Assembly: GCA_030615365.1 (NCBI GenBank)
Contig: JAUWZM010000003.1
Location: forward strand, 1 to 64,000
Direction: 5' to 3'
DNA: 64,000 nt
DNA from: Candidatus Aerophobota bacterium
GTDB lineage: Bacteria; Aerophobota; Aerophobia; Aerophobales; B3-G15
Below the pieces are notes generated by a model. It made no database searches and was not told where the DNA came from. It was given only the letters and a program-made list of their open reading frames with translations. Positions within the stretch are counted from its first letter, which is position 1. Every line of letters starts with the position of its first letter. Below are positions 3,135 to 57,080 of this stretch, one piece after another. The translations under genes and the position numbers were made by a program.

Positions 3135-3403
3135 GAAAAGAAATTTTGATTTCAGTTGTATTGGTTAAGTTTGACCTTATTTGTTGTAACAGGTAAGTTT
3201 CTCTAAAAAAATGTGCGACTCCTCGCTTCCCCTTCGCTTCGCTCTGGGCTTCTTTGTTATTGTAGCGCAGGTCTTCAGACCTGCCAAATCAAGCAGACCT
3301 AAAGGTCTGCACTACATCGTTAATACCCTTATTTTTTCCTGAAACTGGAGGAAAAAACTTGACAAAACTTCTATATTTGCTAAAAATACTACCATGGATA
3401 GAA
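3135..3403. repeat. Gene-free stretch with hairpin repeats before the trp region
   Basis: A possible left element end, GTAACAGGTAAGTTTCTC, occurs at 3186. A pair of related hairpins lies at about 3262-3316: one stem uses GCAGGTCT/AGACCTGC and the next GCAGACCT/AGGTCTGC. The same hairpin type recurs near 1010-1030, 11814-11872 and 40072-40097. A promoter-like TTGACA (3359-3364) with a 16-base spacer and TAAAAA (3381-3386) ends the stretch and could start the trp transcript. No coding region was recognised. Confidence 0.5.
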
Positions 3404-3661
3404 GTAACAGTTAAGATTTCTTAAAAAAATGTGCGACTTCTTACCTGCCATTGCGCAAAGCATGCGGTGGCACAGACATCTTGTCTGTGGAAGTCAAAGC
3501 AATCTCAGGGCAGGCTTGGAACAGGCTCTGAAAACCGCCCAATGAATTGGGCAACTACTGTAGCTTACCGATTTATCGGCGCATTAAAAAACCGCCCAAT
3601 GAATTGGGCAACTACTTCTTAATTGACAGAGAAAAGAGGAAAATTTTAGAAAAGTTATTAC
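3404..3661. repeat. Short inverted-repeat element (MITE-like) upstream of trpE
   Basis: The left end reads GTAACAGTTAAGATTTCTT and the right end, on the opposite strand, GTAATAACTTTTCTAAAA. The interior holds two copies of hairpin GCCCAAT-GA-ATTGGGC and one of type CCGAT-TT-ATCGG. Ends and interior match the elements at 6988-7245 and 31268-31435. No clear target duplication remains. A 63-codon open frame across the hairpins is a translation of repeat DNA. Confidence 0.6.
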
Positions 3662-6987: not shown

Positions 6988-7245
6988 GTAACAGGTAAGT
7001 TTCTCTAAAAAATGTGAGGTTCCTCACTTGCCATTACTGTAGCTTGCCGATTTATCGGCGAATTAAACCCACCCAACGAATTGGACAGCTACTGTAGCTT
7101 GCCGATTTATCGGCGAATTAAACCCACCCAATGAATTGGACAGCTACTGTAGCTTGCCGATTTATCGGCGCATTAAAATCGCCCAATGAATTGGGCAACT
7201 ACAATTGGCAGAGAAAACAAGGATTTTAGAAAAGCTAACTATTAC
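6988..7245. repeat. MITE-like element between trpD and trpC
   Basis: Both ends read inward as GTAA(C/T)AG: left GTAACAGGTAAGTTTCTC, right (opposite strand) GTAATAGTTAGCTTTTC. They are flanked by GTGTCAAC (6980-6987) and GTGTCAAT (7246-7253), an 8-bp target duplication with one mismatch. The interior holds three tandem 55-bp units (7038, 7093, 7148), each with two small perfect hairpins, GCCGAT-TT-ATCGGC and an AAT-GA-ATT type. Without it the trpD-trpC gap would be about 50 bp. It fills most of the 309-bp gene-free stretch. Confidence 0.8.
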
Positions 7246-9862: not shown

Positions 9863-10671
9863 ATCGTATAACTGAAACATTCGAAAAATTAAAAAAGAAA
9901 GGCGAGAAAGCCTTCATACCCTTCATCACCCTGGGGTATCCTGACTTAAGGATCTGTGAGGATTTAATTTTTGAGCTGGAAAAAGAAGGTGCAGACATTA
10001 TTGAGTTGGGTATTCCTTTCTCCGACCCTTTAGCTGATGGTCCGGTTATTCAAACTGCTTCTTACAAGTCTTTGGAAGGTGGAATTACCCTGAAGAAAGC
10101 TATTGAATTTGTAGAGAGGGTACGAAGGAAAACCTCTTTGCCTCTTATCTTTATGGGCTACTATAATCCTATCTTTAAGTTTGGAGAGAGAGAATTTATC
10201 AATCGAGTTTCAGAAGCTGGGCTTGATGGAGTAATTGTAGCTGATTTACCCCCTGAGGAAGCTAAAAATATACAGCGATATGCGAGGAGAAGGGACTTAG
10301 CTCTGATTTTTCTTCTTACCCCGGTAAGTTCTGATGACAGGATAAAACTTGTCTGTGATATGAGTGAAGGATTCGTGTACTGTGTATCCTACACTGGAGT
10401 AACAGGGAAAGAAGAGAGAGAGGAAAAGATGCTGGGATATTTTATAAAGAAGGTTCAATCCCACACCCATACACCTGTAGCCATAGGATTTGGTATTTCC
10501 TCTCCCTCCGAGGCAAGAAAATTATCCCACCTTGCTGATGGAGTTATAATTGGCTCAGCTATTATTCGCAGGATGATGGAGAATAAAGATAAGAAAAATA
10601 TGGTGGAAAAAGTAGGCGAGTTTGTCCGTTCTCTATCCCAGGCTATCAAAAGTGCTCACTTTCCATCTTAA
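9859..10671 (+). CDS. trpA: Tryptophan synthase alpha subunit
   Basis: This releases indole from indole-3-glycerol phosphate and channels it to TrpB. The 270-residue barrel shows [16 protein letters not shown], containing the catalytic Glu and Asp, and the phosphate loop GFGISSP. The ATG overlaps the trpB stop. It is the last gene of the trp operon. No clear terminator follows, only AT-rich DNA and a hairpin repeat. Confidence 0.96.
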
Positions 10672-10751
10672 CTTCAAAGCTCAATATTCTTACCCAATTT
10701 CTTGATAAAAAATAAACTCTTGTCTTTTACTGCCAATTGGGTATAATAAAC

Positions 10752-10892
10752 ATAAGCTGCAGTTTGCCGATTTATCGGCGTATTAAAACCGCCTGATGAA
10801 TCAGGCAACTACAACTTCGCCCAATGAATTTGGCAGCTACAACTACAATTAACAGAGGAATGAGGAAAGTTTTAGAAAAGCTAAACTGGCAC
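10752..10892. repeat. Degenerate hairpin repeat between trpA and galU
   Basis: The stretch contains GCCGAT-TT-ATCGGC, GCCTGAT-GA-ATCAGGC and a GCCCAAT-GA-ATT hairpin. It ends with GTTTTAGAAAAGCTAAACT, resembling the right end of the MITE-like family. No matching left end or target duplication was found, so it is probably a decayed copy. Confidence 0.5.
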
Positions 10893-10927
10893 TAATAAAC
10901 TTGAAGACAAGTTTACAGGAGGTAGCC

Positions 10928-11803
10928 ATGGGAGTGATAAAAAAGGTAGTTATTACTGCGGCCGGATTTGGCACTCGTTTCCTGCCCATTACGAAAGCTC
11001 AGCCCAAGGAAATGTTACCTATAATTGATAAACCAGCCGTTCAGTATATCGTTGAGGAAGCTGTTGCCTCAGGAATGGAAACTGTAATTATAGTTACCTC
11101 TCGGGGTGAAAGATCCCTGGAGGAATATTTTAATTTTAACTTCGAACTGGAAAGTCATCTAAAGAAAACTCAGAAAAAAGAACTCCTCTCTCAGGTTCAT
11201 TGTATCAGCAATCTCGCCAATTTTGTATATATTCACCAAAAAGGACCCTATGGAAATGGTACGCCAATTTTAAATGCCAGAGCAGTGGTAGGAAATGAAC
11301 CTTTTGCTGTATTGTGGGGAGACGACCTTTTAGTAAGTGATACTACACCAAGGCTACAGCAGCTAATAGAAACTTTTCAACAATACCAATCTCCCATATT
11401 AACTGCGTATCCAGTGGACAGGGAAGGAACAAAAAAATACGGAATTATAAAGGGGAAAAAAATTAACTCAAAGGTAATCCAGGTAGAGGAAATTATAGAA
11501 AAACCCGGACCCCGAAGAGCACCTTCCAGAATAGCTGCCATGGGAGGTTACATTTTAACTCCTGACATATTTGATGCGTTAGAAAAAACCCAACTCGGTA
11601 AAAACAACGAGCTCTGGTTAGTTGACGCTATCTTTAAGCTTTCTCAAAAAAGACCTATCTATGCCTGCCTGGTTGAGGGTAAACATTACGATATAGGATC
11701 GAAAATCGGCTGGTTAAAGACAAATATTGAATTTGGGTTAAAACATCCTCAGATAAAAGAGGAGTTAAAAAAATACCTAAAGGTAATAGGTAAGTTTTCC
11801 TAA
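10928..11803 (+). CDS. galU: UTP-glucose-1-phosphate uridylyltransferase
   Basis: This makes UDP-glucose for surface polysaccharides. The nucleotide-binding N-terminus GFGTRFLPITKAQPKEMLP and the later EEIIEKPGP segment are diagnostic. A TTG lies upstream in frame at 10901, but AGGAGG at 10917-10922 sits 5 bases before the ATG at 10928, so that ATG is chosen, giving 291 residues. The last six codons (VIGKFS) and the stop lie in the left end of an inserted inverted-repeat element. Before insertion the frame would have ended at 11972-11974, overlapping the next gene. Confidence 0.93.
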   Translation: MGVIKKVVITAAGFGTRFLPITKAQPKEMLPIIDKPAVQYIVEEAVASGMETVIIVTSRGERSLEEYFNFNFELESHLKKTQKKELLSQVHCISNLANFVYIHQKGPYGNGTPILNARAVVGNEPFAVLWGDDLLVSDTTPRLQQLIETFQQYQSPILTAYPVDREGTKKYGIIKGKKINSKVIQVEEIIEKPGPRRAPSRIAAMGGYILTPDIFDALEKTQLGKNNELWLVDAIFKLSQKRPIYACLVEGKHYDIGSKIGWLKTNIEFGLKHPQIKEELKKYLKVIGKFS

Positions 11804-11942
11804 AAGCTAACAATGTAGTGCAGACCTTCAGGTCTGCCTAAATTCATCAGGCCTAAAGGCCTGAACTACATTTGAGGGATAAAGACGAGGTTGGCTATCC
11901 GCAGGGATTTGCCAAAATCCTTTTTGAAAACTAAACTATTAC
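11783..11942. repeat. MITE-like element that terminates galU
   Basis: Left end GTAATAGGTAAGTTTTCC; right end on the opposite strand GTAATAGTTTAGTTTTC. The flanks are a perfect 8-bp direct repeat, ACCTAAAG, at 11775-11782 and 11943-11950. The 160-bp interior has two hairpins of the GCAGACC..GGTCTGC and AGGCCT..AGGCCT types. This is the best-defined copy of the family in the window. Confidence 0.88.
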
Positions 11943-11966
11943 ACCTAAAGAGAACAGAGAATACCA

Positions 11967-13304
11967 ATGCCTAAAAAAACATTAAAAGAGCTGAGAAAGG
12001 ACAGTATGAAAATCTTCTATGCTGGTCTGAGTGCAGCAGATTCTTTTAAAGCGGTAAACAAATTTGTCCACAGGAAAGGGAACTTGCTTGAGATAGGCAA
12101 GGACTCCTATTTTTTAGATGACTTTAAACATATTTATATAGTAGGAGCAGGTAAGGCCAGTGCCCACATGGGTAAAGCCATGGAGGTCATCTTAAAGAAT
12201 AGGCTGAAAAAAGGATTTATTACTGTAAAGTATGGGTATGGAGAAAAACTAAAAAAAATAAAAATAAATCAAGCCGGCCATCCTATTCCAGACGAATCTG
12301 GAGTAAAGGGAGCAACAGAAATTATACGTTTGCTCCAAACCGCTGGAAAAGATGACCTGGTAATCTGTCTCATCTCAGGAGGAGGTTCAGCTCTTCTCCC
12401 TCTACCAGCAAAAGGGATAACTCTTCAAGAGAAGCAGCACACAACTCAGCTCCTTTTAAAATGTGGAGCCTGCATTGAAGAGATTAATACTTTGAGAAAG
12501 CATCTTTCCCGGATTAAAGGAGGGTGGTTAGCTAAAATAGCTTTTCCTGCTCAACTTATCAGCCTGATATTGTCCGATGTCATAGGAGATCCTTTAACCG
12601 CAATTGCCTCAGGACCAACTGTACCTGATACAACTACCTATGAGGAGTGCTGGAACATAGTGAGAAAATATAACCTAAAAGATAAGCTCCCCCCCTCAGT
12701 TCTTAATCATCTGGATAAAGGAAGAAAAGGAGAGATTCCCGAGACTCCCAAGGAAGGAAATCCAGTTTTTAAAAAGGTGAAAAATATAATTATAGGGAGT
12801 AACAATTTAGCTATTAAGGCAGCCCGAATCCAGGCTAAAAAATTAGGTTATCATACCCTTGTTCTATCATCTTTTATAGAGGGAGAAACAAGAGAAGTAG
12901 CCAAAGTGCATACAGCTATAGCCAAAGAAATACTCGCAACGGGAAATCCTGTTCCTGCCCCAGCTTGTGTACTTTCAGGAGGAGAAACTACCGTAACTAT
13001 TAAAGGAAAAGGAATGGGAGGAAGAAATCAGGAATTTGCCCTGGCGGCTGGGATAGAAATTAAAGGAATGGAGAATGTGGTAATTTTAAGTGCAGGCACC
13101 GATGGCAGTGATGGGCCAACTGATGCTGCTGGAGCAATTGTAGATGGAGCAACTCTATTAAAAGCAGAAAAAATTGGGATAAATGCCCAGGAATACCTTG
13201 AAGATAACAACTCCTATCACTTTTTCCAGAAAATAAAAGACCTTTTTATAACCGGACCCACCAGTACCAATGTTATGGACCTATACCTTATCCTGATTGG
13301 TTAA
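11967..13304 (+). CDS. gckA: Glycerate 2-kinase (MOFRL family)
   Basis: Members of this family phosphorylate glycerate to 2-phosphoglycerate. The N-terminal DUF4147 domain includes VGAGKASAHMG and CLISGGGSALLPLP. The C-terminal MOFRL domain has CVLSGGETTVT and LSAGTDGSDGPTDAAGA, ending with the usual TGPTSTNVMDL. The 445-residue length is typical. It lies directly after galU and was probably coupled to it before the 160-bp element inserted. The ATG at 11967 follows a poor ribosome-binding site, as expected for a coupled start. The symbol could equally be garK or ttuD. Confidence 0.88.
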   Translation: MPKKTLKELRKDSMKIFYAGLSAADSFKAVNKFVHRKGNLLEIGKDSYFLDDFKHIYIVGAGKASAHMGKAMEVILKNRLKKGFITVKYGYGEKLKKIKINQAGHPIPDESGVKGATEIIRLLQTAGKDDLVICLISGGGSALLPLPAKGITLQEKQHTTQLLLKCGACIEEINTLRKHLSRIKGGWLAKIAFPAQLISLILSDVIGDPLTAIASGPTVPDTTTYEECWNIVRKYNLKDKLPPSVLNHLDKGRKGEIPETPKEGNPVFKKVKNIIIGSNNLAIKAARIQAKKLGYHTLVLSSFIEGETREVAKVHTAIAKEILATGNPVPAPACVLSGGETTVTIKGKGMGGRNQEFALAAGIEIKGMENVVILSAGTDGSDGPTDAAGAIVDGATLLKAEKIGINAQEYLEDNNSYHFFQKIKDLFITGPTSTNVMDLYLILIG

Positions 13305-14820: not shown

Positions 14821-15003
14821 GTTACTATTCAGCCACCAAGACACGAAGACACCAAGCAAACCCCGGTCTTAAAATTTTAGCGTATTCTGTGTTTTCTGTG
14901 GTTAATCTCTTTAGCAATGAATTCTTCTCTTTCCGATGGAGGTTTAAAATTCATATCACTTCTTTGTGCCTTGGTGACTTAGTGGTCTGAGCTGTTACTA
15001 TTC
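14821..15003. repeat. Inverted-repeat element bounded by a 10-bp direct repeat
   Basis: The ends read inward as AGCCACCAAGACACGAAG and, on the opposite strand, AGCTCAGACCACTAAGTC. They are flanked by GTTACTATTC at 14821-14830 and again at 14994-15003. The interior matches the element at about 20996-21162 closely. It contains no frame. Confidence 0.7.
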
Positions 15004-29205: not shown

Positions 29206-30069
29206 ATGAGAATTAAAGGAAATACCAAAATAGTGGGACTGTTTGGCTATCCAGTGAGTCATTCTTTATCTCCTCTTTTCCAGAATGCTGCTTTTGCTGA
29301 ACTGGGTCTAAATTTTGTTTATCTTTCTTTTTTGGTTCACCCGAAAGATTTAGCCCGAGCAATAGAGGCAATAAGGATTTTGAATTTTACAGGAGTAAAC
29401 GTTACCGTTCCTCATAAAGAAAAGATAGTGGATTATTTGGATGAGGTTTCTCTTGAGGCAGAGAAGATAGGAGCAGTAAATACTGTAGTGAATCAAGAGG
29501 GCAAATTAGTTGGTTATAACACAGATGGAAGAGGATTTATTAGTTCTTTAAAAGGGAGAAGGTTTAATCCCCGGGCTAAAAAGGTTCTTCTTTTAGGAGC
29601 TGGGGGAGCAGCGTTATCCATTGGATTTTCCCTGCTAAGAGAGAGAGCAGGGGAAGTTGTTTTGATTAATCGAACTCAAACTCGGGCTCTAGATTTGTCA
29701 AATCGCTTGAAGAGGTTATTTCCCTCCTCTTTTCTGCGGGTGATTAAATTTAAAGACAGGAACTCTTTCCCAGGAAGGGAAGATATGGAGCTTTTAATTA
29801 ATGCTACTTCAGTAGGAATGGAGGCAGGAGACCCTCTTTTAATTAACCTTGAAGGCTTCTCTCCTGAGATATTTGTGTATGATATAGTGTACAATCGGCC
29901 CACTCAGTTATTAAGGGAGGCTAAAAAGAGAAATCTTCCCTATTTGAATGGTTTGGGAATGCTTATTTCTCAGGGAGCTTTGTCTCTAGAGTTATGGACA
30001 GGGGAAAAGGCTCCCTTGGATAAGATGAGCGAGGCAGTGGAAAGGCAAAAGGTTGCTAAGAATGAGTAG
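29206..30069 (+). CDS. aroE: Shikimate dehydrogenase
   Basis: This reduces 3-dehydroshikimate with NADPH. The 287-residue protein has the substrate loop SHSLSP, the catalytic Lys in NVTVPHKE, NTDGRGF, and a nucleotide-binding GAGGAALSIG. It is the first gene of the long aro run. The aroC start overlaps its stop. The nearest GGAG is about 30 bp from the ATG, so initiation may be weak. Confidence 0.95.
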   Translation: MRIKGNTKIVGLFGYPVSHSLSPLFQNAAFAELGLNFVYLSFLVHPKDLARAIEAIRILNFTGVNVTVPHKEKIVDYLDEVSLEAEKIGAVNTVVNQEGKLVGYNTDGRGFISSLKGRRFNPRAKKVLLLGAGGAALSIGFSLLRERAGEVVLINRTQTRALDLSNRLKRLFPSSFLRVIKFKDRNSFPGREDMELLINATSVGMEAGDPLLINLEGFSPEIFVYDIVYNRPTQLLREAKKRNLPYLNGLGMLISQGALSLELWTGEKAPLDKMSEAVERQKVAKNE

Positions 30070-31228: not shown

Positions 31229-31538
31229 TTATTAAGCCACAGATGGACGCTGATGTTTTCTTTTATTGCAACAGGTAAGTTTCTCTAAAAAATGTGAGGC
31301 TCCTCGCTTGTCATTGCGAGCAAAGCGAAGAAGTAATCTCATGTAGCTTGCCGATTTATCGGCGCATTAAACTCGCCCAATGAATTGGGCAGCTACAATT
31401 GCCAGAGAAAACAAGAATTTTAGAAAAGGTATTACAAAATTTCTAAGAATAATATCTGCAGTTTCTCTATATTTAATTTAAATTTATCTGTGTAAATCTG
31501 CGGCTAAGTCATTATAGAGGAAAGAAGCTAGGCATTGA
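31229..31538. repeat. Two nested repeat elements between aroC and aroKB
   Basis: This 310-bp gene-free stretch begins and ends with halves of an outer repeat: AGCCACAGATGGACGC near 31235 and, on the opposite strand, AGCCGCAGATTTACACAG near 31507. The outer repeat matches the element at 27001-27177. The inner element is listed separately at 31268-31435. Nothing coding is seen. Confidence 0.6.
31268..31435. repeat. MITE-like element inserted in another repeat
   Basis: Left end GCAACAGGTAAGTTTCTC; right end on the opposite strand GTAATACCTTTTCTAAAA. The interior has GCCGAT-TT-ATCGGC and GCCCAAT-GA-ATTGGGC hairpins, as in the trp copies. No 8-bp duplication is evident, and the outer element seems to have lost bases at the junction. 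Confidence 0.65.
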
Positions 31539-40948: not shown

Positions 40949-41029
40949 GTAACAGTTAAGTTTTTGCAAAGGGCTTAGGGATGCCCAAAGCCACTCCGAT
41001 TTTATTTTTTAGGAAAGCTTACCTATTAC
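40949..41029. repeat. Very short (81 bp) MITE-like element
   Basis: Left end GTAACAGTTAAGTTTTTGC; right end on the opposite strand GTAATAGGTAAGCTTTCC. The flanks ACAGAAAA (40941-40948) and ATAGAAAT (41030-41037) agree at six of eight positions, a possible decayed target duplication. A wider TTTCTATGTAA inverted pair surrounds it (40927-40937 and 41027-41037). Confidence 0.6.
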
Positions 41030-55944: not shown

Positions 55945-57080
55945 GAATATTGCATATTACGCCCAATATTGACGCAAAAAAAGGGGGCTCAGTTTCAGCC
56001 ATAAAAAATATCATTTCCATTGAGAGAAAAATAGGCTTTGATAGTACGGTTTTAGGTCTAGATTTTGATGGGGTAAGGCCTACCTTATTCGATAATGCGG
56101 ATTTAATGGCGTTTAGCCCTTCTTTTCCAAAAAGGTTTTCGCGTTCAAAAAAAGCAAATAACTGGCTAAGGGGGAATGCAAACAACTGCGATCTTGTTCA
56201 GGTGCATACTATATGGGGATTCTTACAAATTGAAACCCCGGGTATTTTAAATAAGCTCGGTGTGCCATACGTCATGTGGCCGCATGGTTCATTGGATCCA
56301 TTTGACCTTCGCAAGAAACGGCATCTAAAAAAAATTATTGGCCCAATTATTATACGGAAAGTACTGGAAAGGAGCGCTGCGGTTATCTGCACCACAAAAT
56401 TAGAGGCAGATTTGCTCGAAAAGTATGGGGCAAAATGTAGAACTAAAGTTCTTCCGTTGTCGGTAAATCCCAGCAAAGGACATGGTAATCGTGAGGAATT
56501 TAGAAATAAATACGGGATTTCAAGCAGTGATTTTGTATTATTGTTTTTATCATTAATATGTTATAAAAAAGGTATTAACCTGCTCATCCTTGCTGTAAAG
56601 AATATAGCTAATAAATATTCAAATATTAAGCTGGTGATAGCAGGGTCTGATTTAAATGGTTACGAAAGACAAGTTAAAGAATGGATAAAAAAATATCAAG
56701 TTGAAGATAGAGTAATTATGACAGGATTTTTGTCGGGACAGGATAAAATTAATGCATTTGCAGGTTCTGATTGTTTTGTATTACCCTCAATGAATGAGAA
56801 TTTTGGAATTGCGGTTGTCGAATCATTAAGCAATGGCCTGCCTGTATTGATATCAAACAATGTCTATATTTGGAAGGAGATAATTCAAAGTAACAGCGGA
56901 TGGGTTTGTGAATATTCACATAATTCTTTAATGAAGCAAATTATGAATATTTTGGGAAACCCAAAAGATATTTTAGAGAAAAAAAATAATGCGTCAAAAG
57001 CAGCAGAACAGTTTTACCCTGACAACTTGAAAAACCTGTATAAAAATGTTTACAGGGATTTGCTAACTAATAATGGATAA
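55941..57080 (+). CDS. Glycosyltransferase family 4
   Basis: A GT-B protein of 379 residues. The N-terminus has ITPNIDAKKGGSVSAIKNI and the donor site LPSMNENFGIAVVESLSNG. It resembles capsular or LPS glycosyltransferases that use nucleotide hexoses. The ATG overlaps the previous stop and the end overlaps the radical SAM gene by 8 bp. Confidence 0.88.
   Translation: MRILHITPNIDAKKGGSVSAIKNIISIERKIGFDSTVLGLDFDGVRPTLFDNADLMAFSPSFPKRFSRSKKANNWLRGNANNCDLVQVHTIWGFLQIETPGILNKLGVPYVMWPHGSLDPFDLRKKRHLKKIIGPIIIRKVLERSAAVICTTKLEADLLEKYGAKCRTKVLPLSVNPSKGHGNREEFRNKYGISSSDFVLLFLSLICYKKGINLLILAVKNIANKYSNIKLVIAGSDLNGYERQVKEWIKKYQVEDRVIMTGFLSGQDKINAFAGSDCFVLPSMNENFGIAVVESLSNGLPVLISNNVYIWKEIIQSNSGWVCEYSHNSLMKQIMNILGNPKDILEKKNNASKAAEQFYPDNLKNLYKNVYRDLLTNNG

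What the first reader, a model, noticed from the sequence alone, without database searches (positions are those of the whole stretch)
11783..11942. An inserted MITE-like element rewrote the end of galU, and the pre-insertion operon can be reconstructed
The element is flanked by a perfect 8-bp duplication (ACCTAAAG) and supplies the codons VIGKFS plus stop of galU. Deleting the element and one duplicate restores the frame: galU would continue AGA ACA GAG AAT ACC AAT GCC TAA. That stop overlaps the ATG CCT start of gckA, the coupling used elsewhere in this genome. The agreement supports both element borders and a formerly coupled galU-gckA pair.
Basis: seen in the sequence. Interest (0 to 1): 0.75.

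Follow-up and report, generated by a model that had tools for sequence, protein, structure and literature searches.

The report
Small transposon tail rewrote galU's end
A 160-base non-coding mobile element that resembles the IS66 transposon family has landed in the last codons of a sugar-metabolism gene and supplies its new stop codon, leaving the enzyme core intact and separating it from a gene it probably once overlapped; it is a clean example of a known kind of event.

Summary
Window 11783-11942 is a 160-bp element with imperfect terminal inverted repeats (18 of 22) and a perfect 8-bp target duplication, ACCTAAAG. Its left end supplies galU's last six codons and stop. Without the element and one duplicate, galU would end YLKRTENTNA-stop, overlapping the gckA start by 8 nt.

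Two more two-ended copies lie at 6988-7245 and 40949-41029, flanks matching 7/8 and 6/8. The ends (GTAAYAGKTAAG) and 8-bp duplication point to the IS66 family: not its canonical GTAAGCG ends but the single-ORF, ISBst12-like branch, whose fetched members end near GTAAYnGTTCA, 7 of 12 loci with perfect 8-bp duplications. I read it as an IS66-related MITE. Its interior is an inverted pair of GTAG-headed, REP-like hairpins.

No empty site could be fetched. Of the best 120 GalU hits, only the window's own ends VIGKFS; none has a tail like RTENTNA; the nearest relative (84%) ends DIRI. Insertion and borders are well supported; the ancestral C-terminus and the coupling are inferred. New member of a known kind.

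The parts
10928..11803 (+). galU (UTP-glucose-1-phosphate uridylyltransferase), 291 aa; its last six codons and stop come from the element
   Evidence: best NCBIfam match TIGR01099 (320.7 bits, just under its cut-off of 326.8), residues 4-265; nearest relative 84%
11775..11782 (.). target duplication, left copy ACCTAAAG
11783..11942 (.). 160-bp IS66-type MITE; apart from the end of galU no ORF of 60 aa touches it
11783..11804 (+). left terminal inverted repeat GTAATAGGTAAGTTTTCCTAAA; gives VIGKFS-stop; stops in all three forward frames within 30 nt
11921..11942 (-). right terminal inverted repeat, read inward GTAATAGTTTAGTTTTCAAAAA (18/22 to the left one)
11815..11837 (+). REP-like hairpin, GTAG plus palindrome, first of an inverted pair
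11847..11869 (-). REP-like hairpin, GTAG plus palindrome, second of the inverted pair
11943..11950 (.). target duplication, right copy ACCTAAAG
11967..13304 (+). gckA-like glycerate 2-kinase, 445 aa; now begins 163 bp after galU's stop
   Evidence: NCBIfam matches NF041176 and NF040791, both below their cut-offs; relatives; gap
6988..7245 (.). second two-ended copy of the same end family, between trpD-like and trpC-like genes; flanks GTGTCAAC / GTGTCAAT
40949..41029 (.). third two-ended copy, 81 bp; flanks ACAGAAAA / ATAGAAAT
3186..3207 (+). single left end of a related copy, upstream of the trpE-like gene
   Evidence: 20 of 22 to the end consensus
3404..3425 (+). single left end of a related copy, upstream of the trpE-like gene
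   Evidence: 21 of 22 to the end consensus
31268..31289 (+). left end of a decayed copy; no target duplication seen by eye
   Evidence: 19 of 22 to the end consensus
10871..10892 (-). possible decayed right end just upstream of galU; weak
   Evidence: 17 of 22 to the end consensus, a score that shuffles reach 0.6 times per strand

Best explanation
A non-autonomous element (MITE) with IS66-type ends transposed into the last codons of galU, which probably overlapped the start of gckA. The transposase of an autonomous single-ORF IS66 (ISBst12-like) element elsewhere in the genome would have recognised the GTAAYAG... ends and joined them to target DNA with an 8-bp stagger; gap filling made the two ACCTAAAG copies. 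Because the site lies behind the part of GalU that the family model covers, the element only replaced a free C-terminal tail with VIGKFS and a stop, and the galU-gckA overlap became a 163-bp spacer with strong hairpins. Shown: element, ends, duplication, further copies, frame arithmetic. Inferred: the transposase, the event itself (no empty site seen), the former coupling, that GalU still works, and that gckA is now translated from its own start site (a GAG seven bases upstream, read by eye).
For: Perfect 8-bp duplication flanking 18/22 inverted repeats. Two further two-ended copies with 7/8 and 6/8 flanks. Single-ORF IS66 loci fetched here: paired ends found in 9 of 12, perfect 8-bp duplications in 7 of 12 (L099, L101, L102, L103, L105, L107, L108; L101 and L108 share one transposase); 9 of the 16 ends used match GTAAYnGTTCA exactly, the rest differ at one to three places (typed list). 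A matrix of those 16 ends ranks the six ends of the three window copies 3rd to 93rd of 127,976 positions. The element's RNA folds better than 200 of 200 shuffles, z -5.8. GalU tails after the aligned YLK column vary from 0 to 15 residues among the 120 listed hits, and VIGKFS is unique to the window.
Against: No DNA of a relative across the junction was obtained, so no empty site is shown. No listed relative's tail resembles RTENTNA; the 84% relative ends DIRI. One paper gives the IS66 ends as starting GTAAGCG (PMC11946415 passages), and the window's ends do not; the fit is to the ISBst12-like form. Two of the six window ends score slightly higher on a matrix of canonical ends (5.4 against 5.1 bits), so the branch is favoured, not proven. 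No IS66 transposase was recognised in the window, but only 12 of its proteins were searched and no whole genome is held.
Confidence: 0.8

Rival explanations
1. The insertion is real, but galU's ancestral end was not RTENTNA: the frame downstream of the element has drifted, and the agreement of the restored stop with the gckA start is partly luck. (This rival disputes only the coupling step and does not exclude the rest of the best explanation.)
For: The nearest GalU relative (84%) ends DIRI, four residues after YLK, and no listed relative has a tail like RTENTNA. A stop within the next few codons of AT-rich DNA is not rare (inference).
Against: The duplication is still perfect, which argues for a recent event; GalU tails differ widely among relatives.
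Confidence: 0.3
2. The element belongs to another transposon family that also makes 8-bp duplications, and its GTAA ends are coincidental.
For: Several insertion-sequence families make 8-bp duplications (recalled). No autonomous partner was found. The ends are not the canonical GTAAGCG.
Against: ISDge4 of the IS66/ISBst12 group has an end GTAACTGCTCAGCA (the other GTGACTACTCAGCA) and an 8-bp duplication (PMC12898284 passages); fetched single-ORF IS66 loci show the same kind of ends with 8-bp duplications; the window's ends rank high on their matrix.
Confidence: 0.12
3. The interior hairpin pair (REP-like) is the mobile unit, and the surrounding inverted repeats and duplication are chance.
For: GTAG-headed hairpins occur 14 times in the window, some outside any recognised element.
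Against: The outer ends recur with other interiors at 6988-7245 and 40949-41029, and the duplication abuts the outer ends exactly.
Confidence: 0.03

Closest known systems
IS66 family, ISBst12 subgroup (single-ORF IS66 insertion sequences)
   Same: Ends of the GTAAC.G.T.AG kind and 8-bp target duplication; ISDge4 has GTAACTGCTCAGCA / GTGACTACTCAGCA and an 8-bp duplication (passages of PMC12898284); 9 of 16 ends of loci fetched here match GTAAYnGTTCA
   Different: The window element has no transposase, and its ends read GTAAYAGKTAAG, departing at the tenth position from GTAAYnGTTCA
Canonical IS66 (ends GTAAGCG)
   Same: GTAA start and 8-bp duplication; one fetched copy has GTAAGCG ends with a perfect duplication (L085)
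   Different: The window's ends are GTAAYAG, not GTAAGCG; canonical copies are larger and coding
Chunjie MITE of Geobacter uraniireducens
   Same: Short element with terminal repeats and duplications, one copy in an operon, size variants and partial copies (section 6 and passages of review PMC10969869)
   Different: Its original paper was not held; ends and family were not compared
Rickettsia palindromic elements
   Same: Short elements that add residues to host proteins (passages of PMC10969869)
   Different: Those make in-frame fusions in genes; this one ends the protein with its own stop
REP sequences (GTAG plus hairpin)
   Same: The interior holds two GTAG-headed hairpins in inverted orientation; the link of GTAG to REP is recalled
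   Different: No REP-associated transposase was sought

Membership tests
MITE | short, non-coding, with terminal inverted repeats | tested here: met
   160 bp, 18/22 inverted repeats, no ORF of 60 aa touching it other than galU's end
MITE | flanking target duplication | tested here: met
   perfect 8 bp
MITE | several copies in one genome | tested here: met
   three two-ended copies plus three clear single ends (3186, 3404, 31268) in 64 kb; whole genome not held
IS66 family | 8-bp target duplication | tested here: met
   8/8, 7/8, 6/8 at the three two-ended copies
IS66 family | ends begin GTAAGCG (canonical form, as PMC11946415 gives it) | tested here: not met
   ends begin GTAATAG or GTAACAG. 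The family also holds the ISBst12 group, whose ISDge4 does not meet it either; hence 'IS66-related' rather than canonical IS66
ISBst12 subgroup | ends of the GTAAYnGTTCA kind | tested here: inconclusive
   six ends rank 3-93 of 127,976 on the ISBst12-like matrix and 193-1288 on the canonical one, but two of the six score 5.1 against 5.4 bits; the tenth base differs in all six
ISBst12 subgroup | mobilised by a single-ORF IS66 transposase in the same genome | not testable with these tools
   no whole genome held for the window

The most novel reading that the evidence does not exclude
In this lineage an ISBst12-type MITE family with conserved ends but exchangeable interiors made of REP-like hairpins works as a portable stop-plus-hairpin cassette at gene ends: its left end carries stops in all three frames (shown for the left ends at 11783, 6988 and 40949), so an insertion near a 3' end trims or extends a protein and turns an overlapping gene pair into a spaced one.
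Probability: 0.25. Interest if true: 0.45.

Novelty: new member of a known kind. Interest (0 to 1): 0.3.

Why it matters
It borders an insertion cleanly and shows how a small mobile element can split a probably overlapping operon pair while sparing the conserved part of the enzyme. It also ties a family of short repeats in an uncultivated bacterium to a named transposon family, which tells annotators where protein tails are transposon-derived.

Tried and rejected
Whole-genome copy count: no genome is held for the window. Empty site: the one genome-contig scan with GalU gave relatives of at most 63% (best 80 of 581 kept). gckA was then sought in 1 genome (no match), 379 genomes of the phylum of G001 (1 match, 47%) and 35 genomes behind other loci (2 matches, 45% and 47%): no useful relative. 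Viral contigs were scanned twice for the ends (none) and once with GalU relative P0002 (2 loci, 45% and 42%). Plasmids: the element gave no match and window 10900-12300 only partial galU matches in 7 records, at most 14% of the query in the 5 listed. The end pattern in 301 genomes of the phylum of G396 gave 6 matches in 5 genomes against 11 control matches of the reversed pattern, so chance. The single-ORF IS66 query found 0 of 199 genomes in the phylum of G395.

Terminator in the element: none found; the one terminator-like site is on the minus strand inside galU. One promoter-like site, 11909-11937, shuffles giving 0.8 on average. Rfam at gathering scores, 10600-12300 only: no match. Pairs and ends dropped: the fourth pair (56908-57053) does not share the ends; four 16-of-22 end matches were treated as chance.

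Papers: searches were run; I read passages of PMC11946415, PMC12898284 and PMC10969869 and section 6 of the last, nothing else. ISBst12 is named in 3 held papers, none with MITE in its title. Of 258 papers holding at least three of the terms IS66, MITE, miniature inverted-repeat, target site duplication, 20 were listed; two of these hold both IS66 and MITE (PMC12888890, PMC6807381) and were not opened. One paper held all terms on in-frame ends and stop codons (PMC3119063) and was not opened. One search was too unspecific to use. Aerophobetes with transposable: 0. These searches do not show that IS66-related MITEs are unpublished.

Equal contig lengths and sources suggest that galU and gckA lie on one contig in some relatives (30021 bp: P0006/P0138; 3909 bp: P0008/P0134; 5000 bp: P0007/P0137; 16852 bp: P0051/P0216), but contig names are not given and some length matches must be chance, so this is only a hint.

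Changed on checking: confidence lowered from 0.85 to 0.8 and the other-family rival raised from 0.10 to 0.12, because one search gives the IS66 ends as GTAAGCG, not GTAA; the end at 10892 was marked weak because shuffles reach its score.

Full report
What is there. Window 11783-11942 is bounded by ACCTAAAG on both sides and has imperfect terminal inverted repeats, 18 of 22. The galU frame runs into the left repeat and stops at 11803; gckA starts at 11967. Removing 168 bases, the element plus one duplicate, makes galU 292 aa ending YLKRTENTNA, with its stop in the overlap ATGCCTAA.

More than chance. A systematic pair scan of the window gave four pairs, of which three share one end sequence: 11783-11942 (duplication 8/8), 6988-7245 (7/8) and 40949-41029 (6/8); 30 mononucleotide shuffles gave 0.5 pairs on average, at most 2. 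The fourth pair (56908-57053) does not share the ends; I treat it as chance. Clear single ends lie at 3186, 3404 and 31268 (20, 21 and 19 of 22 to the consensus); a weaker one at 10892 (17 of 22) is at a score that shuffles reach 0.6 times per strand. The two-ended copies differ in length (160, 258, 81 bp) and interior. The other two lie between ORFs, one of them between genes with trpD-like and trpC-like Pfam domains.

Which family. One paper gives IS66 ends as starting GTAAGCG with 8-bp duplications (passages of PMC11946415); the window's ends start GTAATAG or GTAACAG, so they are not canonical. The single-ORF ISBst12 group differs: its member ISDge4 has ends GTAACTGCTCAGCA and GTGACTACTCAGCA and an 8-bp duplication (passages of PMC12898284). 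I checked both forms on DNA. PF03050 was found in 6 of 30 genomes. Of the six loci L084-L089, three gave paired GTAAGCG ends, one of them with a perfect 8-bp duplication (L085), and three gave none. With a wider stretch, the sixth (487 aa, one ORF) proved to be bounded by GTAACCGTTCAG ends, 1564 bp, without a duplication (L090). Its protein found 4 of 201 genomes of its phylum, its own included; of the other three loci one had paired ends and a perfect duplication (L099) and two had no pair found (L098, L100). It found 39 plasmid records, of which I fetched 8: six had paired ends with perfect 8-bp duplications (L101 and L108 share one transposase), one paired ends without a duplication (L106), one none (L104). 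Altogether 9 of 12 single-ORF loci gave paired ends and 7 of 12 a perfect duplication.

A matrix of 16 ends from eight of these loci (L108 left out as a repeat of L101) ranks the six ends of the window copies 3, 9, 38, 69, 93 and 93 of 127,976 positions; a matrix of six canonical ends from three loci ranks them 193 to 1288. Ranks on two matrices are only roughly comparable, and two of the six ends score 5.4 bits on the canonical matrix against 5.1 on the other. So an IS66-type element is well supported, and the ISBst12-like branch is the better fit, not proven.

The interior. It folds into two GTAG-headed hairpins facing each other; the whole element folds better than all 200 shuffles, z -5.8. 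GTAG hairpins occur 14 times in the window against 0.65 per mononucleotide shuffle (maximum 4 in 40). GTAG is the top tetramer of 256 by this count, but AAAA (13), TGTA (12, which overlaps GTAG) and TTTT (12) come close, so base composition plays a part. Several GTAG hairpins lie outside any recognised element. The element is thus layered: transposon ends outside, REP-like repeats inside. That GTAG heads REP sequences is recalled.

The protein. GalU's model match ends at residue 265 of 291, before the insertion behind residue 285. Among the best 120 of 7775 GalU hits, tails after this point are 0 to 15 residues long; three have none, two of which I saw to stop short of the region (P0003, P0032). 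Only the window's own ends VIGKFS, and no tail contains TEN or NTN. The nearest relative ends DIRI. The enzyme is therefore probably unharmed, and the tail is a free part, but the ancestral tail is not confirmed. On the gckA side, five of the eight relatives of 82-84% are annotated from a start five codons upstream, MKKIT or MKKII before MSKK (P0123-P0127); the window reads EQRIP before MPKK in that frame (read), one residue of five identical. That is at most a weak sign that the DNA just right of the duplication is old gckA-linked sequence.

Host. The best named relatives are Candidatus Aerophobetes (GalU 67%, gckA 60%) and one record labelled Patescibacteria group bacterium (gckA 84%). The host is an uncultivated bacterium that I cannot name.

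Verdict. Insertion of an IS66-related MITE at galU's 3' end: well supported. Former overlap of galU and gckA: likely, not shown. Ordinary in kind, clean in detail.

Noticed in passing
14821-14998: A second kind of IS66-like two-ended repeat: GTTACTATTCAGCCACCA... / GTAACAGCTCAGACCACT..., flanks TATTTCAA / TATTCTAA (6/8), ends matching 10 of 18. The CACCAAGACACGAAGACACCAAG motif inside is, from recall, a repeat common in environmental genomes, so that repeat may itself be an ISBst12-type MITE (no match in phages).
   Followed up: partly
29142: The best ISBst12-like end in the window (GTAACAGTTCAGCCGC), a single end upstream of an ORF at 29206; no convincing partner end found within 4 kb downstream.
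   Followed up: partly
6988-7245: A MITE copy inside the trp gene cluster whose interior holds three tandem units of about 55 bp (TGTAGCTTGCCGATTTATCGGCG..., counted by eye).
   Followed up: no
1005, 3262, 3315, 3558, 3615, 7202, 10812, 11815, 11869, 31396, 38112, 39888, 39946, 40071: Fourteen GTAG-headed exact hairpins (first base of GTAG given), above shuffles (0.65 on average, at most 4 in 40); REP-like; no REP-associated transposase looked for.
   Followed up: partly
1351-2112 and 2653-2988: ORFs of 253 and 111 aa without a Pfam match at 1e-5.
   Followed up: no
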